Shown: piece by piece, positions 2,546-5,482 of the stretch
Layout: each line of letters starts with the position of its first letter
How positions within the stretch are numbered: the stretch's first letter is position 1
Source of the DNA: Deltaproteobacteria bacterium
GTDB taxonomy: Bacteria > Desulfobacterota_B > Binatia > UBA9968
NCBI GenBank assembly: GCA_030620935.1
Contig: JAUXIP010000168.1
Span: forward strand, 1-5,482
Length of the DNA stretch: 5,482 nucleotides
Direction: 5' to 3'
Translations under genes and position numbers: made by a program
The notes under the pieces: generated by a model
The model's input: the letters and a program-made list of their open reading frames with translations, nothing else
The model's database searches: none
Told to the model about the DNA's origin: nothing

Positions 2546-2893
2546 GTGGCAAGAGCGAGGACTAAGCCTATCGCGATGGCAGAGTCGAACGGGATTCTGA
2601 TGAAGTTTTTTAAAGGACTCGGAGACCCGACCAGACTTCGAATTGTCGAGGCTCTCTTAGATAGGGAAAGGAACGTTTCAGAGCTCATTCAGTTGATCGG
2701 GGTACCTCAAAGTAATGTCTCTAACCATCTCGCCTGCCTAAAGTGGTGCGGTTACATTACGACTCGCAAAGAGGGGACCAGCGTCTACTATCAAATTACC
2801 GACGAACGGGTAAAAAAGATCGTGGAATTGGCGCGAGAGATCATTGCTGATCACGCCGAAAACCTATACGCCTGCACGCGGATTAAGGGCTAA
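2546..2893 (+). CDS. ArsR/SmtB-family metal-sensing repressor, CmtR-like
   Basis: This 115-residue winged-helix protein is probably an autoregulating repressor of the operon. The core GLGDPTRLRIVEALL (24-38), recognition helix VPQSNVSNHLACLKWCG (53-69) and wing ITTRKEGTSVYYQI (71-84) are typical of ArsR proteins. The metal site resembles CmtR: Cys64 and Cys68 sit as C-x3-C in the recognition helix, and Cys110 is near the C-terminus; CmtR uses Cys57, Cys61 and Cys102. The ArsR-type CVC motif in helix 3 is absent. CmtR senses Cd(II)/Pb(II), and three thiolates would also suit Hg(II). I chose GTG 2546 because AAAGGAG (2533-2539) lies 6 nt upstream; the longer frame from ATG 2432 overlaps the ATPase gene and runs through the promoter. 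An ArsR-family sensor replaces the usual MerR here. Confidence 0.88.
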   Translation: MARARTKPIAMAESNGILMKFFKGLGDPTRLRIVEALLDRERNVSELIQLIGVPQSNVSNHLACLKWCGYITTRKEGTSVYYQITDERVKKIVELAREIIADHAENLYACTRIKG

Positions 2894-2915: not shown

Positions 2916-3251
2916 ATGCAAGAGCGATCCCCGACAAAGTATTCTATGAGTTCCGTGCTGAGCGCGCTCATCGGAAGCTGGTGATGACTCGCAGCGCTGG
3001 CCTACGCCTTGTTGGGCGGAGGTGCCGGCTTGGCCGCCAGTCTGGCGGCCTATCGTGAGTGGCTAGGACCGTTCCGGGATGTTTTCTTTTTCGTTGCCCT
3101 GATTCTGATAGCACGATCCCACTATCTCTACTGGGGAGGCCTTAGGAAAAGGGCAAAATGGGTCACAACCATAGCCTTGTGGGTGTCGAGTGTTTTGACG
3201 CTGGCAATGACGGCTGTCTTCTATGTTTATGAGAATCCTATGTTTTTCTGA
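2916..3251 (+). CDS. MerT-like membrane protein with vicinal selenocysteines (UU), selenoprotein
   Basis: Reading two adjacent in-frame UGA codons (2982-2987) as Sec gives a 111-residue protein. Residues 20-30 read GSWUULAALAY, placing Sec23-Sec24 in the first membrane helix, where MerT carries its Cys-Cys pair (Cys24-Cys25 in Tn501 MerT). Further helices lie near residues 53-73 and 82-105, and LGPFRDVFFFVAL resembles the MerT region after TM1. The protein contains no cysteine and lacks the MerT cytoplasmic-loop Cys pair, so it is a divergent MerT-like transporter. ATG 2916 follows GAGGGAGG (2905-2912). The nearest start after the UGAs, TTG 3009, has no ribosome site and would lose the first helix. 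A SECIS-like hairpin begins 13 nt after the second UGA. The probable role is moving Hg(II) or a similar soft metal across the inner membrane. Sec insertion is inferred, not shown. Confidence 0.8.
3001..3022 (+). promoter_or_regulatory. Candidate bacterial SECIS element for the UGA-UGA of the MerT-like gene
   Basis: CCTACGCC (3001-3008) pairs with GGCGGAGG (3015-3022) around the six-base loop TTGTTG: eight stacked positions with one A·G mismatch. The loop starts 21 nt after the second UGA and 24 nt after the first, inside the usual window for SelB recognition. It lies within the coding sequence, as bacterial SECIS elements do. A G near the loop start is commonly expected; here the first G is the third loop base. 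Confidence 0.6.
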
Positions 3252-3278
3252 GGCGCCTCCAGAGAGGATTGATTGGGT

Positions 3279-3632
3279 ATGACTCTGAAGAGTCTTCAAG
3301 CTGGACTTGTAAGCTTCACTGGAGCCATGATCGCTTCTCTCTGTTGCCTTTTACCCTTGACCGTTGTTCTTTTGGGCTTAGGCAGTGGGGCATTTATGAT
3401 GGTGACCATGCAGTACCGCTCGATCTTTCTTCCTGCCGGAGTGGTTAGTGTAGGGTTGGGATACTATCTTTACTTTCGAGAAAAGCGTCGCTGTGCCACT
3501 CTTGCCTGTGCTTTCGCAGGGAGGAAAACTAACCTGGCACTATTGATGTTTGCCACAGTGGTGGTGGCTACAGCCCTCGTTTTGGATATCTTCCCGGAAC
3601 TGAGCTCGGAGTTTTTGCAGAGGGCTATGTAA
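3279..3632 (+). CDS. merT: Mercuric ion transport protein MerT (canonical Cys form)
   Basis: The 117-residue protein has the classic MerT layout of three membrane helices. The vicinal pair Cys22-Cys23 lies in the first helix (ASLCCLLPLTVVLLGLG). A second pair, Cys72 and Cys77 (CATLAC), sits in the cytoplasmic loop after helix 2, matching the Cys pair of known MerT. In the family, MerT takes Hg(II) from MerP and passes it to the cytosolic reductase. The ATG at 3279 is the likely start, with AGAGAGG (3261-3267) 11 nt upstream; the in-frame TTG at 3273 is 5 nt from the same site and would add two residues. The gene lies 27 bp after the Sec MerT-like gene and ends in TAA. Having Cys and Sec versions side by side is unusual and suggests duplication followed by Cys/Sec exchange. 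Confidence 0.9.
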   Translation: MTLKSLQAGLVSFTGAMIASLCCLLPLTVVLLGLGSGAFMMVTMQYRSIFLPAGVVSVGLGYYLYFREKRRCATLACAFAGRKTNLALLMFATVVVATALVLDIFPELSSEFLQRAM

Positions 3633-3649
3633 ATGGGTAGGGGATAGGC

Positions 3650-3973
3650 GTGAGAAGCAGGCGGATTGTTTTTCCAACTCTTTTTTTTCTCCTGACCTTC
3701 GGGTGGCTGTCGGCTTGCGATCCGGGCAATGAAGCACTGGATACGAGTAGCCTAAGCCAAGTCACCTTGCGGATCGAGGGCATGACCTGAGGGGGTTGAC
3801 CCCTCACCGTGAGGAGGGCCCTGGAGGGGCTCGAAGGAGTTAAAAAGGCGGAAGTAAGCTTCTCTCAAGAAGAAGCGGTTGTCTACTACGAGCAAGGAAG
3901 GGCAAGTATTGATGAGATGATGAGTGCTGTTGGCAACGCAGGTTTTCGGGCGACGAAAAAACAGCGTCCGTGA
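3650..3973 (+). CDS. merP: MerP-like lipoprotein with U-x-x-U metal site, selenoprotein
   Basis: With two in-frame UGA codons (3788-3790 and 3797-3799) read as Sec, this encodes 107 residues. Residues 44-58 read GMTUGGUPLTVRRAL, aligning position for position with the MerP motif GMTCAACPITVKKAL, so Sec47 and Sec50 replace both metal-binding cysteines. The remainder fits the HMA ferredoxin-like fold (EGVKKAEVSF, then a helix ending AVGNAGF). The N-terminus is a lipoprotein signal: basic RSRR, a hydrophobic stretch, then lipobox L20-S-A-C23. Asp24 at +2 would favour inner-membrane retention under the E. coli Lol rule. Known MerP is a soluble periplasmic protein, so a tethered form is unusual. 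GTG 3650 follows TAGGGGAT (3638-3645). Standard gene calling would miss this gene entirely. Its inferred role is to capture Hg(II) outside the membrane and donate it to MerT/MerF-type carriers. Confidence 0.85.
3788..3806 (+). promoter_or_regulatory. Perfect hairpin enclosing both UGA codons of the MerP-like gene
   Basis: TGAGGGG (3788-3794) and CCCCTCA (3800-3806) form a perfect 7-bp stem around the loop GTTGA. The first UGA is the base of the 5' arm and the second UGA ends the loop. It is too close to the first UGA for a standard SECIS, so it may modulate decoding or may simply follow from the Gly-Gly/Pro codons. Confidence 0.5.
3816..3832 (+). promoter_or_regulatory. Candidate bacterial SECIS element for the MerP-like gene
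   Basis: GGGCCC (3816-3821) pairs with GGGCTC (3827-3832), with one G·U pair, around the loop TGGAG (3822-3826). The loop starts 22 nt after the second UGA and 31 nt after the first, so one element could serve both. A G at the second loop position fits the bacterial SECIS preference. Confidence 0.6.
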
Positions 3974-3995
3974 ACCTTCGCAAGTGGAGGTCGTG

Positions 3996-4211
3996 ATGGA
4001 TGGTAACAAGTGCTTTAAGACAGGTCTGTGGGGATCAATTATCGCAGCCATATGTTGTTTCACACCGGTCCTCGTGGTGGGGCTTGGTTTGGTGGGACTG
4101 GCAACGCTTACCTCTTATCTCGACTATGTGCTTTTTCCTCTTCTTTGTCTTTTCTTGATCTTGGCGTTGTACGGTTGGTGGATTAGGAAGAGCCAGAGCA
4201 AAAGCTCTTAG
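3996..4211 (+). CDS. merF: Mercuric ion transporter MerF
   Basis: The 71-residue protein has two membrane helices and closely follows MerF. AAICCFTPVLVVGLGLVGL (17-35) contains the vicinal Cys20-Cys21 pair and the CCFTPVLV signature, and YLDYVLFPLL matches the start of MerF helix 2. MerF moves Hg(II) across the inner membrane into the cytosol. ATG 3996 has GGAGG (3986-3990) 5 nt upstream; an in-frame ATG at 3924 would overlap the MerP-like gene and is unlikely. Known MerF is about 81 residues and has a second vicinal Cys pair near its C-terminus. This one ends ...RKSQSKSS with no such pair, so its cytosolic hand-off may rely on another protein, perhaps the Sec glutaredoxin or Sec MerP-like protein downstream. 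Cys6 is an extra thiol at the N-terminus. Confidence 0.92.
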   Translation: MDGNKCFKTGLWGSIIAAICCFTPVLVVGLGLVGLATLTSYLDYVLFPLLCLFLILALYGWWIRKSQSKSS

Positions 4212-4233
4212 CTTCCAGCGAGGGAGGACCGAT

Positions 4234-4470
4234 ATGGGAAAGAAAATTACCGTATATTCTGCTACCGGCTGAGCATCATGCCACGCAGCGAAAGAGTTTC
4301 TTTCGCATCATAACATTCCCTTCACAAATAGGAACGTAGCAGAAGACCCGGAGGCTCTACGCGAGCTTACCGAGAAGACCGGACGCAGAGCTACGCCTGT
4401 GATTGTGGTGGACAAGGAGGTTATTGTGGGCTTCGACCGCGGGAAACTAGAGCGGCTTTTGAGTCTATGA
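4234..4470 (+). CDS. Glutaredoxin/NrdH-like protein with U-x-x-C active site, selenoprotein
   Basis: With the UGA at 4270-4272 read as Sec, this encodes a 78-residue cytosolic thioredoxin-fold protein. Strand 1 KKITVYSATG leads straight into U13-A-S-C16, the position of the glutaredoxin C-x-x-C; Sec would be the N-terminal attacking residue. Family features follow: helix HAAKEFLSHHNI, the cis-Pro loop ATPVIVV with Pro55, and the C-terminal GFDRGKLERLL found in small Grx-like proteins. ATG 4234 has AGGGAGGA (4221-4228) 5 nt upstream. A perfect SECIS-like hairpin lies 16 nt after the UGA. In this operon the protein could reduce oxidised Sec/Cys pairs in the MerP- and MerT-like proteins, or relay the metal; that is inference. 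It terminates at UGA in frame with the next gene, only 9 nt before that gene's ATG. Confidence 0.87.
4288..4306 (+). promoter_or_regulatory. Bacterial SECIS element of the Sec glutaredoxin
   Basis: GCGAAAGA (4288-4295) and TCTTTCGC (4299-4306) form a perfect 8-bp stem closed by the loop GTT (or AGTTT if the last pair opens). The loop begins 23 nt after the UGA, with G as its first base. Length, distance and loop G all match bacterial SECIS expectations, making this the clearest of the four. Confidence 0.75.
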
Positions 4471-4479
4471 GGTCGTCGA

Positions 4480-4779
4480 ATGGCAGTTCTTATTTGCCCC
4501 GGGTGTGGGGAAACGGTGTCGGTAAATGAGTTAACAGTTGGAGACCGGATGAATTGTCCTAACTGCGCCAATTTGACACTGAAGCTTTCCGAAAAGGATG
4601 GCCGGCTTTTTCTCAGGGAGGTCGCCAAAGTCAGCTGTCCGTCTTGTGATCGCATGATGGAGGTACCAGAGGGAATGGGCCCCGGAGAGAGCCTGAATTG
4701 CTGCGGCGAGCAATTCACTCTTACGTATGAATTTGGCTCATTCGCATTAGTTCGTGACGTTAACCGTGAAAACAACTAA
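4480..4779 (+). CDS. Duplicated zinc-ribbon protein of unknown function
   Basis: This 99-residue soluble protein shows two similar halves. Each has a CPxC knuckle, an acidic/Val stretch, a G-(D/E)-x-(M/L)-N-C element and a beta-rich tail: CPGC (6-9) with CPNC (26-29), then CPSC (53-56) with Cys74-Cys75. The first half resembles LysW-like zinc ribbons. I do not recognise a named family for the whole protein. ATG 4480 has GAGG (4469-4472) 7 nt upstream, overlapping the glutaredoxin stop, which suggests translational coupling. Lying between a Sec glutaredoxin and MerE in a metal operon, its eight cysteines could bind Zn or Hg(II) as a buffer or chaperone; this is speculation. It has no signal peptide or membrane segment, and its end overlaps the start of the MerE gene. 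Confidence 0.82.
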   Translation: MAVLICPGCGETVSVNELTVGDRMNCPNCANLTLKLSEKDGRLFLREVAKVSCPSCDRMMEVPEGMGPGESLNCCGEQFTLTYEFGSFALVRDVNRENN

Positions 4780-5020
4780 GAACACGTTTCTCCTCGCTAT
4801 CGCTGTGATCACATGTCCGTGCCATCTCCCGTTTGTTCTCCCTGGCCTCGCCGGACTATTGGCCGGTACCGCCATAGGTGCTTTTGTTTCCGAGAACACG
4901 GCTTTGCTTGCCGGCCTGGCTATAATTTCCTTTGTCGGAACCACGGTCTACTGGATATCGCAAACCACTGATACGAAACGCAATGAAGAAACAAACCGTC
5001 CTGAGCGCCCGCATGAATAA
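4754..5020 (+). CDS. merE: Mercury transporter MerE
   Basis: The 88-residue protein has two membrane helices. AIAVITCPCHLPFVLPGLAG (15-34) holds the diagnostic MerE motif TCPCHLP with Cys21 and Cys23, and the following LLAGTAIGAFVSENTALLAGLA matches the MerE loop and second helix. MerE has been described as a carrier for Hg(II) and methylmercury. The tail after the second helix (TDTKRNEETNRPERPHE) is hydrophilic and longer than usual. The start is uncertain: GTG 4754 overlaps the zinc-ribbon gene by 26 nt, and GTG 4766 in the same frame overlaps by 14. Neither has a clear ribosome site, so coupling to the upstream gene is likely. The stop overlaps the next gene's ATG by 8 nt. Here, unlike in neighbouring genes, the Cys pair is not replaced by Sec. 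Confidence 0.9.
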   Translation: MTLTVKTTKNTFLLAIAVITCPCHLPFVLPGLAGLLAGTAIGAFVSENTALLAGLAIISFVGTTVYWISQTTDTKRNEETNRPERPHE

Positions 5021-5267
5021 AATAAAAATAGTAATAGGAGATATGGGTTGAGAAAGATGTGTCTCCCGTGTGGAGACTGCTTTCCGTGATCTCCCCGGCA
5101 TTCACGTCGTTGAGGTTCGGCTTATAGCCAGTAACGTCGGTGAAGCCGACCTTTTCTGTGATGCAGGGGTGCCCGATCGTTGGCAGCTACAGGAAGTTCT
5201 ATCACGCGCTGGCGGCGAAAAACACCATTTCAAGGTCGTGTCTGTTCTCGAAGAAAGACCGTCCTAA
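5013..5267 (+). CDS. Cytosolic MerP/NmerA-like HMA domain with U-x-x-C site, selenoprotein
   Basis: Reading UGA 5049-5051 as Sec gives 84 residues. Strand 1 NKIKIVIGDMG runs into U13-E-R-C16, followed by VSRVETAFRDLPGIHVVEV, which matches the HMA pattern GMxCxxC...V..AL..LPGV. There is no signal peptide, so it acts in the cytosol, unlike the lipoprotein MerP. ATG 5013 overlaps the MerE stop (ATGAATAA), implying coupling. ATG 5043 follows an AGGAG at only 2 nt and would delete strand 1. An additional Cys49 lies in FCDAG, and the C-terminal half (WQLQEVLSRAG...KVVSV) fits the second helix and last strand. It directly precedes a MerA-like gene that starts at its FAD domain without an HMA domain, so this may be a free-standing NmerA-type donor to the reductase. 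Standard calling would truncate it to GTG 5070. Confidence 0.84.
5052..5084 (+). promoter_or_regulatory. Candidate bacterial SECIS element of the cytosolic Sec HMA protein
   Basis: GTCTCC (5061-5066) and GGAGAC (5072-5077) form a perfect 6-bp stem with the loop CGTGT, which has G at its second position and starts 15 nt after the UGA. A lower helix, GAAAG (5052-5056) with CTTTC (5080-5084), begins right after the UGA and is separated by an asymmetric internal loop (ATGT/TG). Confidence 0.68.
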
Positions 5268-5373: not shown

Positions 5374-5482
5374 ATGAAAAAAACTTTTGATCTTATAGTC
5401 ATTGGAACTGGCGCGGCGGCCTCTGCGGCGGCATTTAAATGTCGCTCCGCGGGGTGGAACGTGGCAGTCATCGACTCGAGAC
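5374..5482 (+). CDS. merA: Mercuric reductase-like flavoprotein disulfide reductase, N-terminus only
   Basis: Only 36 residues are visible before the window ends. They begin MKKTFDLIVIGTGAAASAAA and continue with a second strand ending AVIDS. This is the beta-alpha-beta FAD-binding fold with GTGAAAS for the usual GxGxxG/A, seen in mercuric reductase and dihydrolipoamide dehydrogenase relatives; the Ala-rich GTGAAA form is common in MerA. ATG 5374 has AGAGGAG (5358-5364) 9 nt upstream. Position at the end of a mer operon points to MerA, which reduces Hg(II) to Hg(0) with NADPH. Many MerA proteins carry an N-terminal HMA (NmerA) domain; this one starts directly at the FAD domain. The catalytic Cys pair and C-terminal Cys pair lie outside the window, so dihydrolipoamide dehydrogenase or another relative cannot be excluded. 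Confidence 0.72.
   Translation, partial: MKKTFDLIVIGTGAAASAAAFKCRSAGWNVAVIDSR

What the first reader, a model, noticed from the sequence alone, without database searches (positions are those of the whole stretch)
2916..5267. A mercury-resistance operon rebuilt with selenocysteine: six predicted Sec in four genes
Four mer-type genes (MerT-like, MerP-like, glutaredoxin-like, HMA-like) carry in-frame UGA exactly at metal-binding or redox Cys positions. Each has a SECIS-like hairpin at a suitable distance and each sits among intact mer genes. Selenolates bind Hg(II) more tightly than thiolates while exchanging ligands quickly, so a selenol relay for Hg(II) would be chemically striking; it could also serve another soft metal. 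Individual Sec forms of MerP- or Grx-like proteins have, as I recall, been reported in selenoproteome surveys. A whole pathway with this density is unknown to me.
Basis: partly seen in the sequence, partly recalled or inferred. Interest (0 to 1): 0.95.

Follow-up and report, generated by a model that had tools for sequence, protein, structure and literature searches.

The report
Selenocysteine-built mercury-type metal transport operon
An uncultured bacterium carries a mercury-type metal-handling gene cluster in which four proteins appear to use selenium in place of sulfur exactly where they should grip the metal, and some other uncultured bacteria do the same in parts, which points to a selenium-based hand-over of a toxic metal.

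Summary
Confirmed: 2916-5267 holds six in-frame UGAs in four mer-type genes (MerT-like 2982/2985, MerP-like 3788/3797, glutaredoxin 4270, HMA 5049), all at metal-binding or redox Cys positions (about 7e-12 by chance). UGA also terminates three of the four, so the code is not reassigned. Relatives support selenocysteine: all five MerT matches start 8-20 residues after the UU; a 59% MerP relative reads GMTWGAW, probably UGA shown as Trp; nine Acidobacteriota genomes have UGA at the first Cys of MerP's motif; two genomes of another lineage keep three such UGAs, omega 0.09-0.19 downstream. Strict SECIS hairpins follow 10 of 11 Sec but 5 of 155 Cys MerP-type sites. Ten relatives' genomes have tRNA-Sec hits, one weak. 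Single Sec MerT, MerP and Grx proteins are listed in reviews; I found no report of this operon. Most likely a partly selenolate-based relay for Hg(II) or another soft metal. The metal is inferred: the regulator is CmtR-like, the flavoenzyme is cut off at 36 residues, and the window's own genome is not held.

The parts
2546..2893 (+). ArsR/SmtB-family regulator with CLKWC in the recognition-helix region (CmtR-like)
   Evidence: PF01022 57.7 bits; best solved relative 2jsc, Rv1994c, with both Cys of SNHLxCLxxCG aligned
2916..3251 (+). MerT-like membrane protein with two adjacent Sec (SWUUL)
   Evidence: no Pfam match at E up to 0.1; NCBIfam merT_RC607 E 6e-11, 42.6 bits against a cut-off of 130; five relatives, 71-81% identical, all starting 8-20 residues after the UU
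2982..2987 (+). tandem Sec codons UGA UGA
   Evidence: UU also in MerT-like frames of L127 and L122
2996..3029 (+). candidate SECIS of merT-UU
   Evidence: -19.8 kcal/mol, 0 of 166 other TGAs of the window as stable; strict hairpin 3005-3018 -6.5, codon-shuffle p 0.22
3273..3632 (+). second MerT-like protein, Cys form (LCCLLP)
   Evidence: PF02411 30.1 bits, below the 32.9 cut-off
3650..3973 (+). MerP-like protein with GMTUGGU; LSAC lipobox-like N-terminus (pattern recalled)
   Evidence: PF00403 45.2 bits; NF041115 85.7 bits, cut-off 95; residues 47/50 fall on residues 14/17 of MerP 1afi by match coordinates
3788..3790 (+). Sec codon 1 of MerP
3797..3799 (+). Sec codon 2 of MerP
3816..3832 (+). 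SECIS hairpin of merP, loop GGA 23 nt after second UGA
   Evidence: -9.8 kcal/mol, codon-shuffle p 0.03; same loop and distance with a different stem in L002
3993..4211 (+). MerF, Cys form
   Evidence: NF033565 86.5 bits, cut-off 50; PDB MerF 2m67 E 1e-13
4234..4470 (+). glutaredoxin (YruB / Uxx-star-like) with TGUASC
   Evidence: PF00462 61.4 bits; NF041212 65.8 bits, cut-off 66; TIGR02196 85.5 bits, cut-off 88.55
4270..4272 (+). Sec codon of Grx
   Evidence: aligns with the first Cys of CPHC in 7c10; UGA at the same site in L002 and L152
4288..4306 (+). SECIS hairpin of grx (GCGAAAGAGTTTCTTTCGC)
   Evidence: -8.6 kcal/mol, codon-shuffle p 0.003; the same hairpin at the same distance in L002
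4480..4779 (+). small zinc-ribbon protein with several CxxC (LysW-like), Cys only
   Evidence: NF041070 37.3 bits, below its cut-off of 75
4766..5020 (+). MerE-like membrane protein, Cys form (CPCH)
   Evidence: PF05052 31.2 bits, cut-off 22.8; NCBIfam MerE 38.1 bits, cut-off 80, not met
5013..5267 (+). small protein with HMA N-terminus, GDMGUERC; no signal peptide evident by eye
   Evidence: PF00403 25.8 bits, cut-off 24.8 (scanned from 5016); start overlaps the merE stop
5049..5051 (+). Sec codon of HMA protein
5061..5077 (+). candidate SECIS of HMA gene (GTCTCC-CGTGT-GGAGAC), loop 15 nt after UGA
   Evidence: -7.5 kcal/mol, codon-shuffle p 0.003 only when the range is widened to 14-37 nt; nothing in 16-37
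5374..5482 (+). start of FAD/NAD-linked disulfide reductase (MerA position), cut off by window end
   Evidence: PF00890 and weaker PF07992; 25/33 and 22/36 identical to the GGTCxxRGCDPKK enzymes of L121 and L126 versus 15/32 and 14/33 to canonical MerA of L002 and L004

Best explanation
This is a mer-type soft-metal transport and detoxification operon in which four proteins are selenoproteins. UGA is read as selenocysteine through SECIS hairpins just downstream, replacing the metal-binding or redox Cys. Proposed path: a membrane-tethered, extracytoplasmic MerP-like protein captures the metal with a UxxU pair and passes it to the adjacent UU pair in the first membrane helix of the MerT-like protein. 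Inside, the HMA (UxxC) and glutaredoxin (UxxC) proteins take the metal or re-reduce the relay, and a flavin disulfide reductase completes detoxification. A CmtR-like ArsR repressor senses the metal. Shown by sequence: UGAs at motif sites, their conservation, SECIS enrichment, the gene set, Sec machinery in relatives. Inferred: membrane topology, the relay and its direction, the metal (Hg(II) or methylmercury favoured, Cd or another soft metal possible) and the reductase step. The second MerT, MerF and MerE keep Cys, so the relay is mixed.
For: Six of six UGAs at motif positions, P 7e-12. MerT relatives: 5 of 5 matches start 8-20 residues after the UU. MerP relative GMTWGAW. Acidobacteriota: 10 of 81 MerP-like matches hold one TGA and none holds TAA/TAG; 9 of the 10 are at the first motif Cys; MerT-UU in two of these loci. 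L002 and L152: Sec in Grx and two HMA proteins beside MerF, MerE, MerT and MerA; all three UGAs kept, omega after UGA 0.19, 0.09, 0.13. SECIS: 10 of 11 Sec versus 5 of 155 Cys sites. tRNA-Sec above cut-off in 10 of 10 (one weak) and SelB in 8 of 10. MerF and MerE over Pfam cut-offs.
Against: The window's own genome is not held, so its sel genes are untested. Strict SECIS is weak for MerT (p 0.22) and outside the published distance for HMA. Looser SECIS tests gave weak results (Fisher p 0.010; p 0.13). SelA is found in only 6 of the 9 Acidobacteriota genomes with Sec-MerP, against 222 of 347 in the phylum. The five MerT relatives were seen only as proteins: two come from contigs under 500 bases and one has no Met start, so a contig edge or an internal start could explain some of the truncation. 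MerT-UU matches no Pfam family. Nothing here identifies the metal; no MerR and no full MerA are seen.
Confidence: 0.8

Rival explanations
1. The genes are selenoproteins, but the system handles another soft metal or an organometal (Cd, Pb, Cu, Ag, As, organomercury), or serves mainly as redox defence, not Hg(II) resistance.
For: Regulator nearest to CmtR 2jsc with both Cys of its Cys-pair motif (that CmtR senses Cd/Pb is recalled). Flavoenzyme start closer to a non-canonical reductase without C-terminal CC. HMA domains also match Cu chaperones and Cu ATPases. L002 operon holds an ArsP_1-type permease.
Against: MerF, MerE, MerT-like and MerP-like proteins together are a mercury set; L002, which shares the Sec-Grx, has a MerA-like enzyme ending SCCAE.
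Confidence: 0.3
2. Decaying pseudogenes or assembly/sequencing errors at Cys codons.
For: Individual TGAs could arise by one base change from TGC/TGT.
Against: All six at motif sites, none elsewhere and no TAA/TAG; same sites in other data sets and genomes; omega 0.09-0.19 after UGA in relatives; SECIS enrichment.
Confidence: 0.03
3. UGA is reassigned genome-wide (Trp, Gly or Cys) in this organism.
For: One database relative is shown with W at both sites.
Against: The ABC ATPase gene, merT-UU, merP and grx all end with TGA, and four of the five MerT relatives end at the same residue, the fifth one residue later.
Confidence: 0.02

Closest known systems
Sec-containing mercuric transport proteins (MerT-like C/SxxU, ABB16073; MerP) of the Olavius symbiont and GOS surveys, as listed in PMC13188914, PMC9312934, PMC2398784 (passages seen)
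   Same: Sec in MerT- and MerP-type proteins
   Different: Listed as single families; the review gives the MerT motif as C/SxxU with one Sec, here two adjacent Sec in MerT and four Sec genes in one operon
NCBIfam NF041115 UxxU metal-binding (seleno)protein
   Same: HMA domain with UxxU; best NCBIfam match of the window's MerP, 85.7 bits
   Different: Below the curated cut-off of 95
NCBIfam NF045683 MerT/CopZ fusion-like heavy metal transport selenoprotein
   Same: MerT plus HMA selenoprotein
   Different: A fusion of 235 positions; here separate genes, scores far below cut-off
SAO and Tso selenoprotein operons (PMC13188914)
   Same: Several selenoproteins in one operon, SAO with links to organometals; the window's Grx resembles the UXX-star families the review lists with the Tso work
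   Different: No SaoX- or TsoA-type family matched the eight window proteins scanned; UXX-star matches are all below cut-off
Canonical mer operon
   Same: MerT, MerP, MerF, MerE types, a flavin reductase at the end
   Different: ArsR/CmtR-like regulator, Sec at metal sites, added Grx and zinc-ribbon genes, reductase start closer to a non-canonical type

Membership tests
bacterial selenoprotein genes | in-frame UGA at a conserved Cys position | tested here: met
   6 of 6; relatives
bacterial selenoprotein genes | bSECIS hairpin, loop 16-37 nt downstream, G in first two loop positions | tested here: met
   MerP and Grx met; MerT met with an interrupted stem, weak with a strict one; HMA at 15 nt, outside the range. 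Across loci 10 of 11 Sec versus 5 of 155 Cys MerP-type sites
bacterial selenoprotein genes | SelA, SelB, SelD and tRNA-Sec in the same genome | not testable with these tools
   no genome held for the window. In ten relatives: tRNA-Sec 10 of 10 above cut-off, SelB 8 of 10; SelA 7 of 10; SelD not tested
mer operon | MerT/MerP/MerF/MerE transport and binding genes | tested here: met
   MerF over Pfam and NCBIfam cut-offs; MerE over the Pfam but not the NCBIfam cut-off; both MerT-like proteins below cut-off; MerP is an HMA protein below the MerP cut-off (65.5 against 92.55)
mer operon | mercuric reductase MerA | tested here: inconclusive
   only 36 residues in the window
mer operon | MerR-type Hg(II) regulator | tested here: not met
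   ArsR/SmtB family, nearest solved relative CmtR
NF041115 UxxU metal-binding protein | curated score cut-off 95 | tested here: not met
   85.7 bits
Uxx-star glutaredoxin-like NF041212 | curated score cut-off 66 | tested here: not met
   65.8 bits, marginal
SAO / Tso systems | presence of Sao or Tso families | tested here: not met
   none named Sao or Tso among NCBIfam matches at E up to 0.01 for the eight window proteins scanned; the regulator and the reductase start were not scanned with NCBIfam

The most novel reading that the evidence does not exclude
A dedicated selenolate relay for Hg(II) or another soft metal: the ion is handed from a UxxU binding lipoprotein to a UU membrane transporter to UxxC cytosolic carriers, a metal pathway in which selenium ligands replace thiols at successive steps, evolved or spread in several uncultured lineages.
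Probability: 0.5. Interest if true: 0.88.

Novelty: new variant of a known kind. Interest (0 to 1): 0.78.

Why it matters
Sec is known mainly as a redox catalyst; here it occupies metal-binding positions in several consecutive steps of one transport pathway. If true it gives a natural test of how selenolate ligands trade very tight soft-metal binding against fast exchange, adds an operon-scale use of Sec, and shows that such genes are miscalled in databases: the five relatives of this MerT found here are stored as truncated pieces. It also links selenium supply to the handling of mercury-type metals in microbes.

Tried and rejected
Rfam on the window: no match at E up to 1; I did not check which bacterial SECIS families the library holds. 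Taxonomy of the host: ABC permease against 50 genomes matched 13, at best 35% identity; ABC ATPase search gave as nearest named relative a Nitrospiraceae MAG at 63%; host left undetermined. MerT-UU was sought in 4, 282 and 329 genomes, in plasmids and in viral contigs without a match; the 282 and 329 sets share at least the handles G011-G029 and are probably the same phylum. With the L127 form it rang in 2 of 347 Acidobacteriota genomes, one being itself, the other a Cys form; that search missed the more distant UU frame of G411 (L122), so it is not exhaustive. Phylum names are taken from the record titles of the loci used as centres; the tool names no group.

The first scan of public genomes found 258 relatives of MerP and kept 80. 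A motif scan of those 80 loci plus the window gave many chance pattern hits, judged by eye; only L002 and L004 held convincing Sec frames.

SECIS statistics: the first, loose hairpin definition was weak (ranks 0 to 0.28; Fisher p 0.010 over 19 sites; codon-shuffle p 0.13 overall, 0.036 for the window). The strict loop pattern printed in PMC13188914 gave p 1e-10 over 19 sites against 0.49 for 5 Cys controls; 2 of the 19 (window HMA, L126) had no strict hairpin at all. The Cys control found only one site because my pattern was too narrow; one search replaced it with 155 Cys sites. The sites are not independent (several Acidobacteriota hairpins are nearly identical), and the strict definition was tried after the loose ones, so the p-values are indicative; the Sec versus Cys contrast is the sturdier result. 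In one search MerP matches without a recognisable motif near their start (among them the two Sec-HMA sites of L002) and duplicate sites were dropped before counting, their number not printed; the 166 sites left were all scored. Widening the distance to 14 nt for the HMA gene was done after seeing its sequence.

Association with SelA was not seen: 6 of 9 Sec-MerP Acidobacteriota genomes against 222 of 347. Gemmatimonadota as control: 5 of 109 matches hold a stop (2 TGA, 2 TAG, 1 TAA), none in the motif. In the tenth Acidobacteriota match with a TGA (G456) the motif is Cys. The 'SEC' mark on the flavoenzyme in L121 was its own stop codon. The promoter scan found fewer and the terminator scan no clear excess over shuffles; no inverted repeat before the regulator.
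Full report
What is there. The window (5482 bases) holds an Fe(III)-type ABC permease and ATPase (1-2466), an ArsR-type regulator (2546-2893) and then a tight run of small genes, all on the + strand: MerT-like with UU (2916-3251), MerT-like with CC (3273-3632), MerP-like with UGGU (3650-3973), MerF (3993-4211), glutaredoxin with UASC (4234-4470), a zinc-ribbon protein (4480-4779), MerE-like (4766-5020), an HMA protein with UERC (5013-5267), and the first 36 residues of a flavin disulfide reductase (5374 on).

Six TGAs lie inside four frames of 380 codons in all, and all six occupy the eight Cys positions of the CC and CxxC motifs (P about 7e-12). MerP residues 47 and 50 fall on residues 14 and 17 of solved MerP 1afi by the match coordinates; these are, from memory, its Hg ligands. 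The Grx UGA aligns with the first Cys of the CxxC of 7c10. MerT-UU, MerP and Grx terminate at TGA themselves, as does the ABC ATPase gene, so UGA is not reassigned.

Relatives. A search of 5.8 billion proteins with MerT-UU scored 176 candidates and gave 5 matches, 71-81% identical; all 5 are 68-80 residues long and start 8-20 residues after the UU position. The best MerP relative (59%) reads GMTWGAW, which looks like a caller that translates UGA as Trp (inference). In 347 genomes of the phylum of G002 (Acidobacteriota by record titles) 81 MerP-like matches in 67 genomes were found; 10 hold one TGA and none holds TAA or TAG. In 9 of these 10 the TGA is the first Cys of GMTCxxC or GMICxxC (G002, G332, G408, G411, G430, G447, G540, G547, G645). 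In 249 genomes of the Gemmatimonadota 5 of 109 matches hold a stop of mixed type, none in the motif. Two of the Acidobacteriota loci also carry a MerT-like frame with UU: L127, next to the Sec-MerP, and L122, about 4 kb away on the other strand. A genome with Cys in MerT has Cys in the MerP beside it (G657). In L002 (MAG 'bacterium isolate JZ-2') one cluster holds MerF, a Cys HMA protein, an HMA protein with CVFU, an ArsP_1-type permease, an HMA protein with CEKU, MerE, Grx with GUAAC, MerT and, further on, MerA. Of the four genomes held for that phylum two have this cluster; the second (L152) keeps all three UGAs, and Nei-Gojobori omega downstream of the UGA is 0.19, 0.09 and 0.13.

SECIS. 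With the strict loop pattern given in PMC13188914 (section 5 read), the window's MerP and Grx have hairpins of -9.8 and -8.6 kcal/mol, loop 23 nt after the last UGA, better than synonymous-codon shuffles of the same protein (p 0.03 and 0.003). The Grx hairpin recurs in L002; the MerP one recurs in L002 with a different stem, the same loop and the same distance. Among MerP-type sites in the loci then held, 10 of 11 Sec sites but 5 of 155 Cys sites have such a hairpin of -7 kcal/mol or better (the window is one of the 11, L126 is the miss). The HMA hairpin sits one nucleotide closer than the published range, and MerT's strict hairpin is not better than shuffles (p 0.22). Looser definitions gave weak statistics; these are told in full under Tried and rejected.

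Sec machinery. The window's genome is not held. In ten relatives' genomes with Sec mer-type genes, tRNA-Sec reaches the gathering score in 10 (nine at 66-75 bits, G447 at 48.9), and SelB passes the cut-off in 8 (not G411, G645). SelA was found in 7 of the 10: G001 and six of the nine Acidobacteriota; G411, G547 and G645 are not in the list of matching genomes. The control shows that the tRNA-Sec model also rings above cut-off in 5 of 14 well-known genomes, so the weak hit in G447 means little; G447 has SelA and SelB close together on one contig.

What it does. By its parts this is a mer-type uptake and detoxification operon. MerP has an LSAC lipobox-like N-terminus (pattern recalled), so it is probably a membrane-tethered lipoprotein. 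The mechanism I favour is the stepwise hand-over given under Best explanation. The metal is not shown. MerF and MerE argue for mercury; the regulator is nearest to CmtR (2jsc) with both Cys of its CxxxC aligned, which (recalled) senses Cd and Pb; the flavoenzyme start is 25/33 and 22/36 identical to enzymes with GGTCxxRGCDPKK and no C-terminal Cys pair, against 15/32 and 14/33 to canonical MerA.

What is known. Sec forms of a mercuric transport protein (C/SxxU), of a UxxU metal-binding protein and of Grx are listed in reviews (PMC13188914: passages and section 5 read; PMC9312934 and PMC2398784: passages seen), and NCBIfam has a MerT/CopZ selenoprotein model. The passage on selenoprotein operons of PMC13188914 names SAO and Tso but no mer operon. 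Passages of PMC12013277 and PMC8318568 hold no word beginning with 'mercur'. Literature searches listed no paper on such an operon, judged by titles and the starts of abstracts; two searches listed only 20 of 69 and 15 of 73. The two primary papers PMC1976440 and PMC9879109 are not held, so an earlier remark there cannot be excluded. Verdict: real, Sec with high confidence, a new variant of the known mer kind, metal and relay still to be tested.

Noticed in passing
window 5374-5482; L121 6091 (-), L126 1596 (-), L007 4385 (+): A flavin disulfide reductase with GGTCxxRGCDPK(K) and no C-terminal Cys pair recurs on the same locus as MerP-like genes; it may be a different metal or thiol reductase from canonical MerA. 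The window's last gene is closest to this type.
   Followed up: partly
window 2546-2893: The operon's regulator is CmtR-like (SNHLACLKWCG plus a C-terminal Cys) instead of MerR.
   Followed up: partly
L004 2152 and 5889: An Acidobacteriota mer-type region has two more Sec-HMA proteins, GMTUDSC and GMIUGLU, with MerT-like and Cys MerA genes and frames that look MerR-like by eye.
   Followed up: partly
P0006: A JGI-sourced relative of the MerP is stored as GMTWGAW, probably because UGA was translated as Trp; Sec genes may hide in databases this way.
   Followed up: no
window 4480-4779: A small zinc-ribbon protein with several CxxC (LysW-like, below cut-off) sits between grx and merE; function unclear.
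   Followed up: no
window 5061-5077: The candidate HMA SECIS hairpin is also reported as a terminator-like site on the minus strand.
   Followed up: no
window 3650-3721; L121, L122, L123, L125: Several Sec-MerP proteins begin with lipobox-like sequences (LSAC, GGC, SSAC, GVGC, SAGC; judged by eye), suggesting lipoproteins rather than soluble periplasmic MerP.
   Followed up: no
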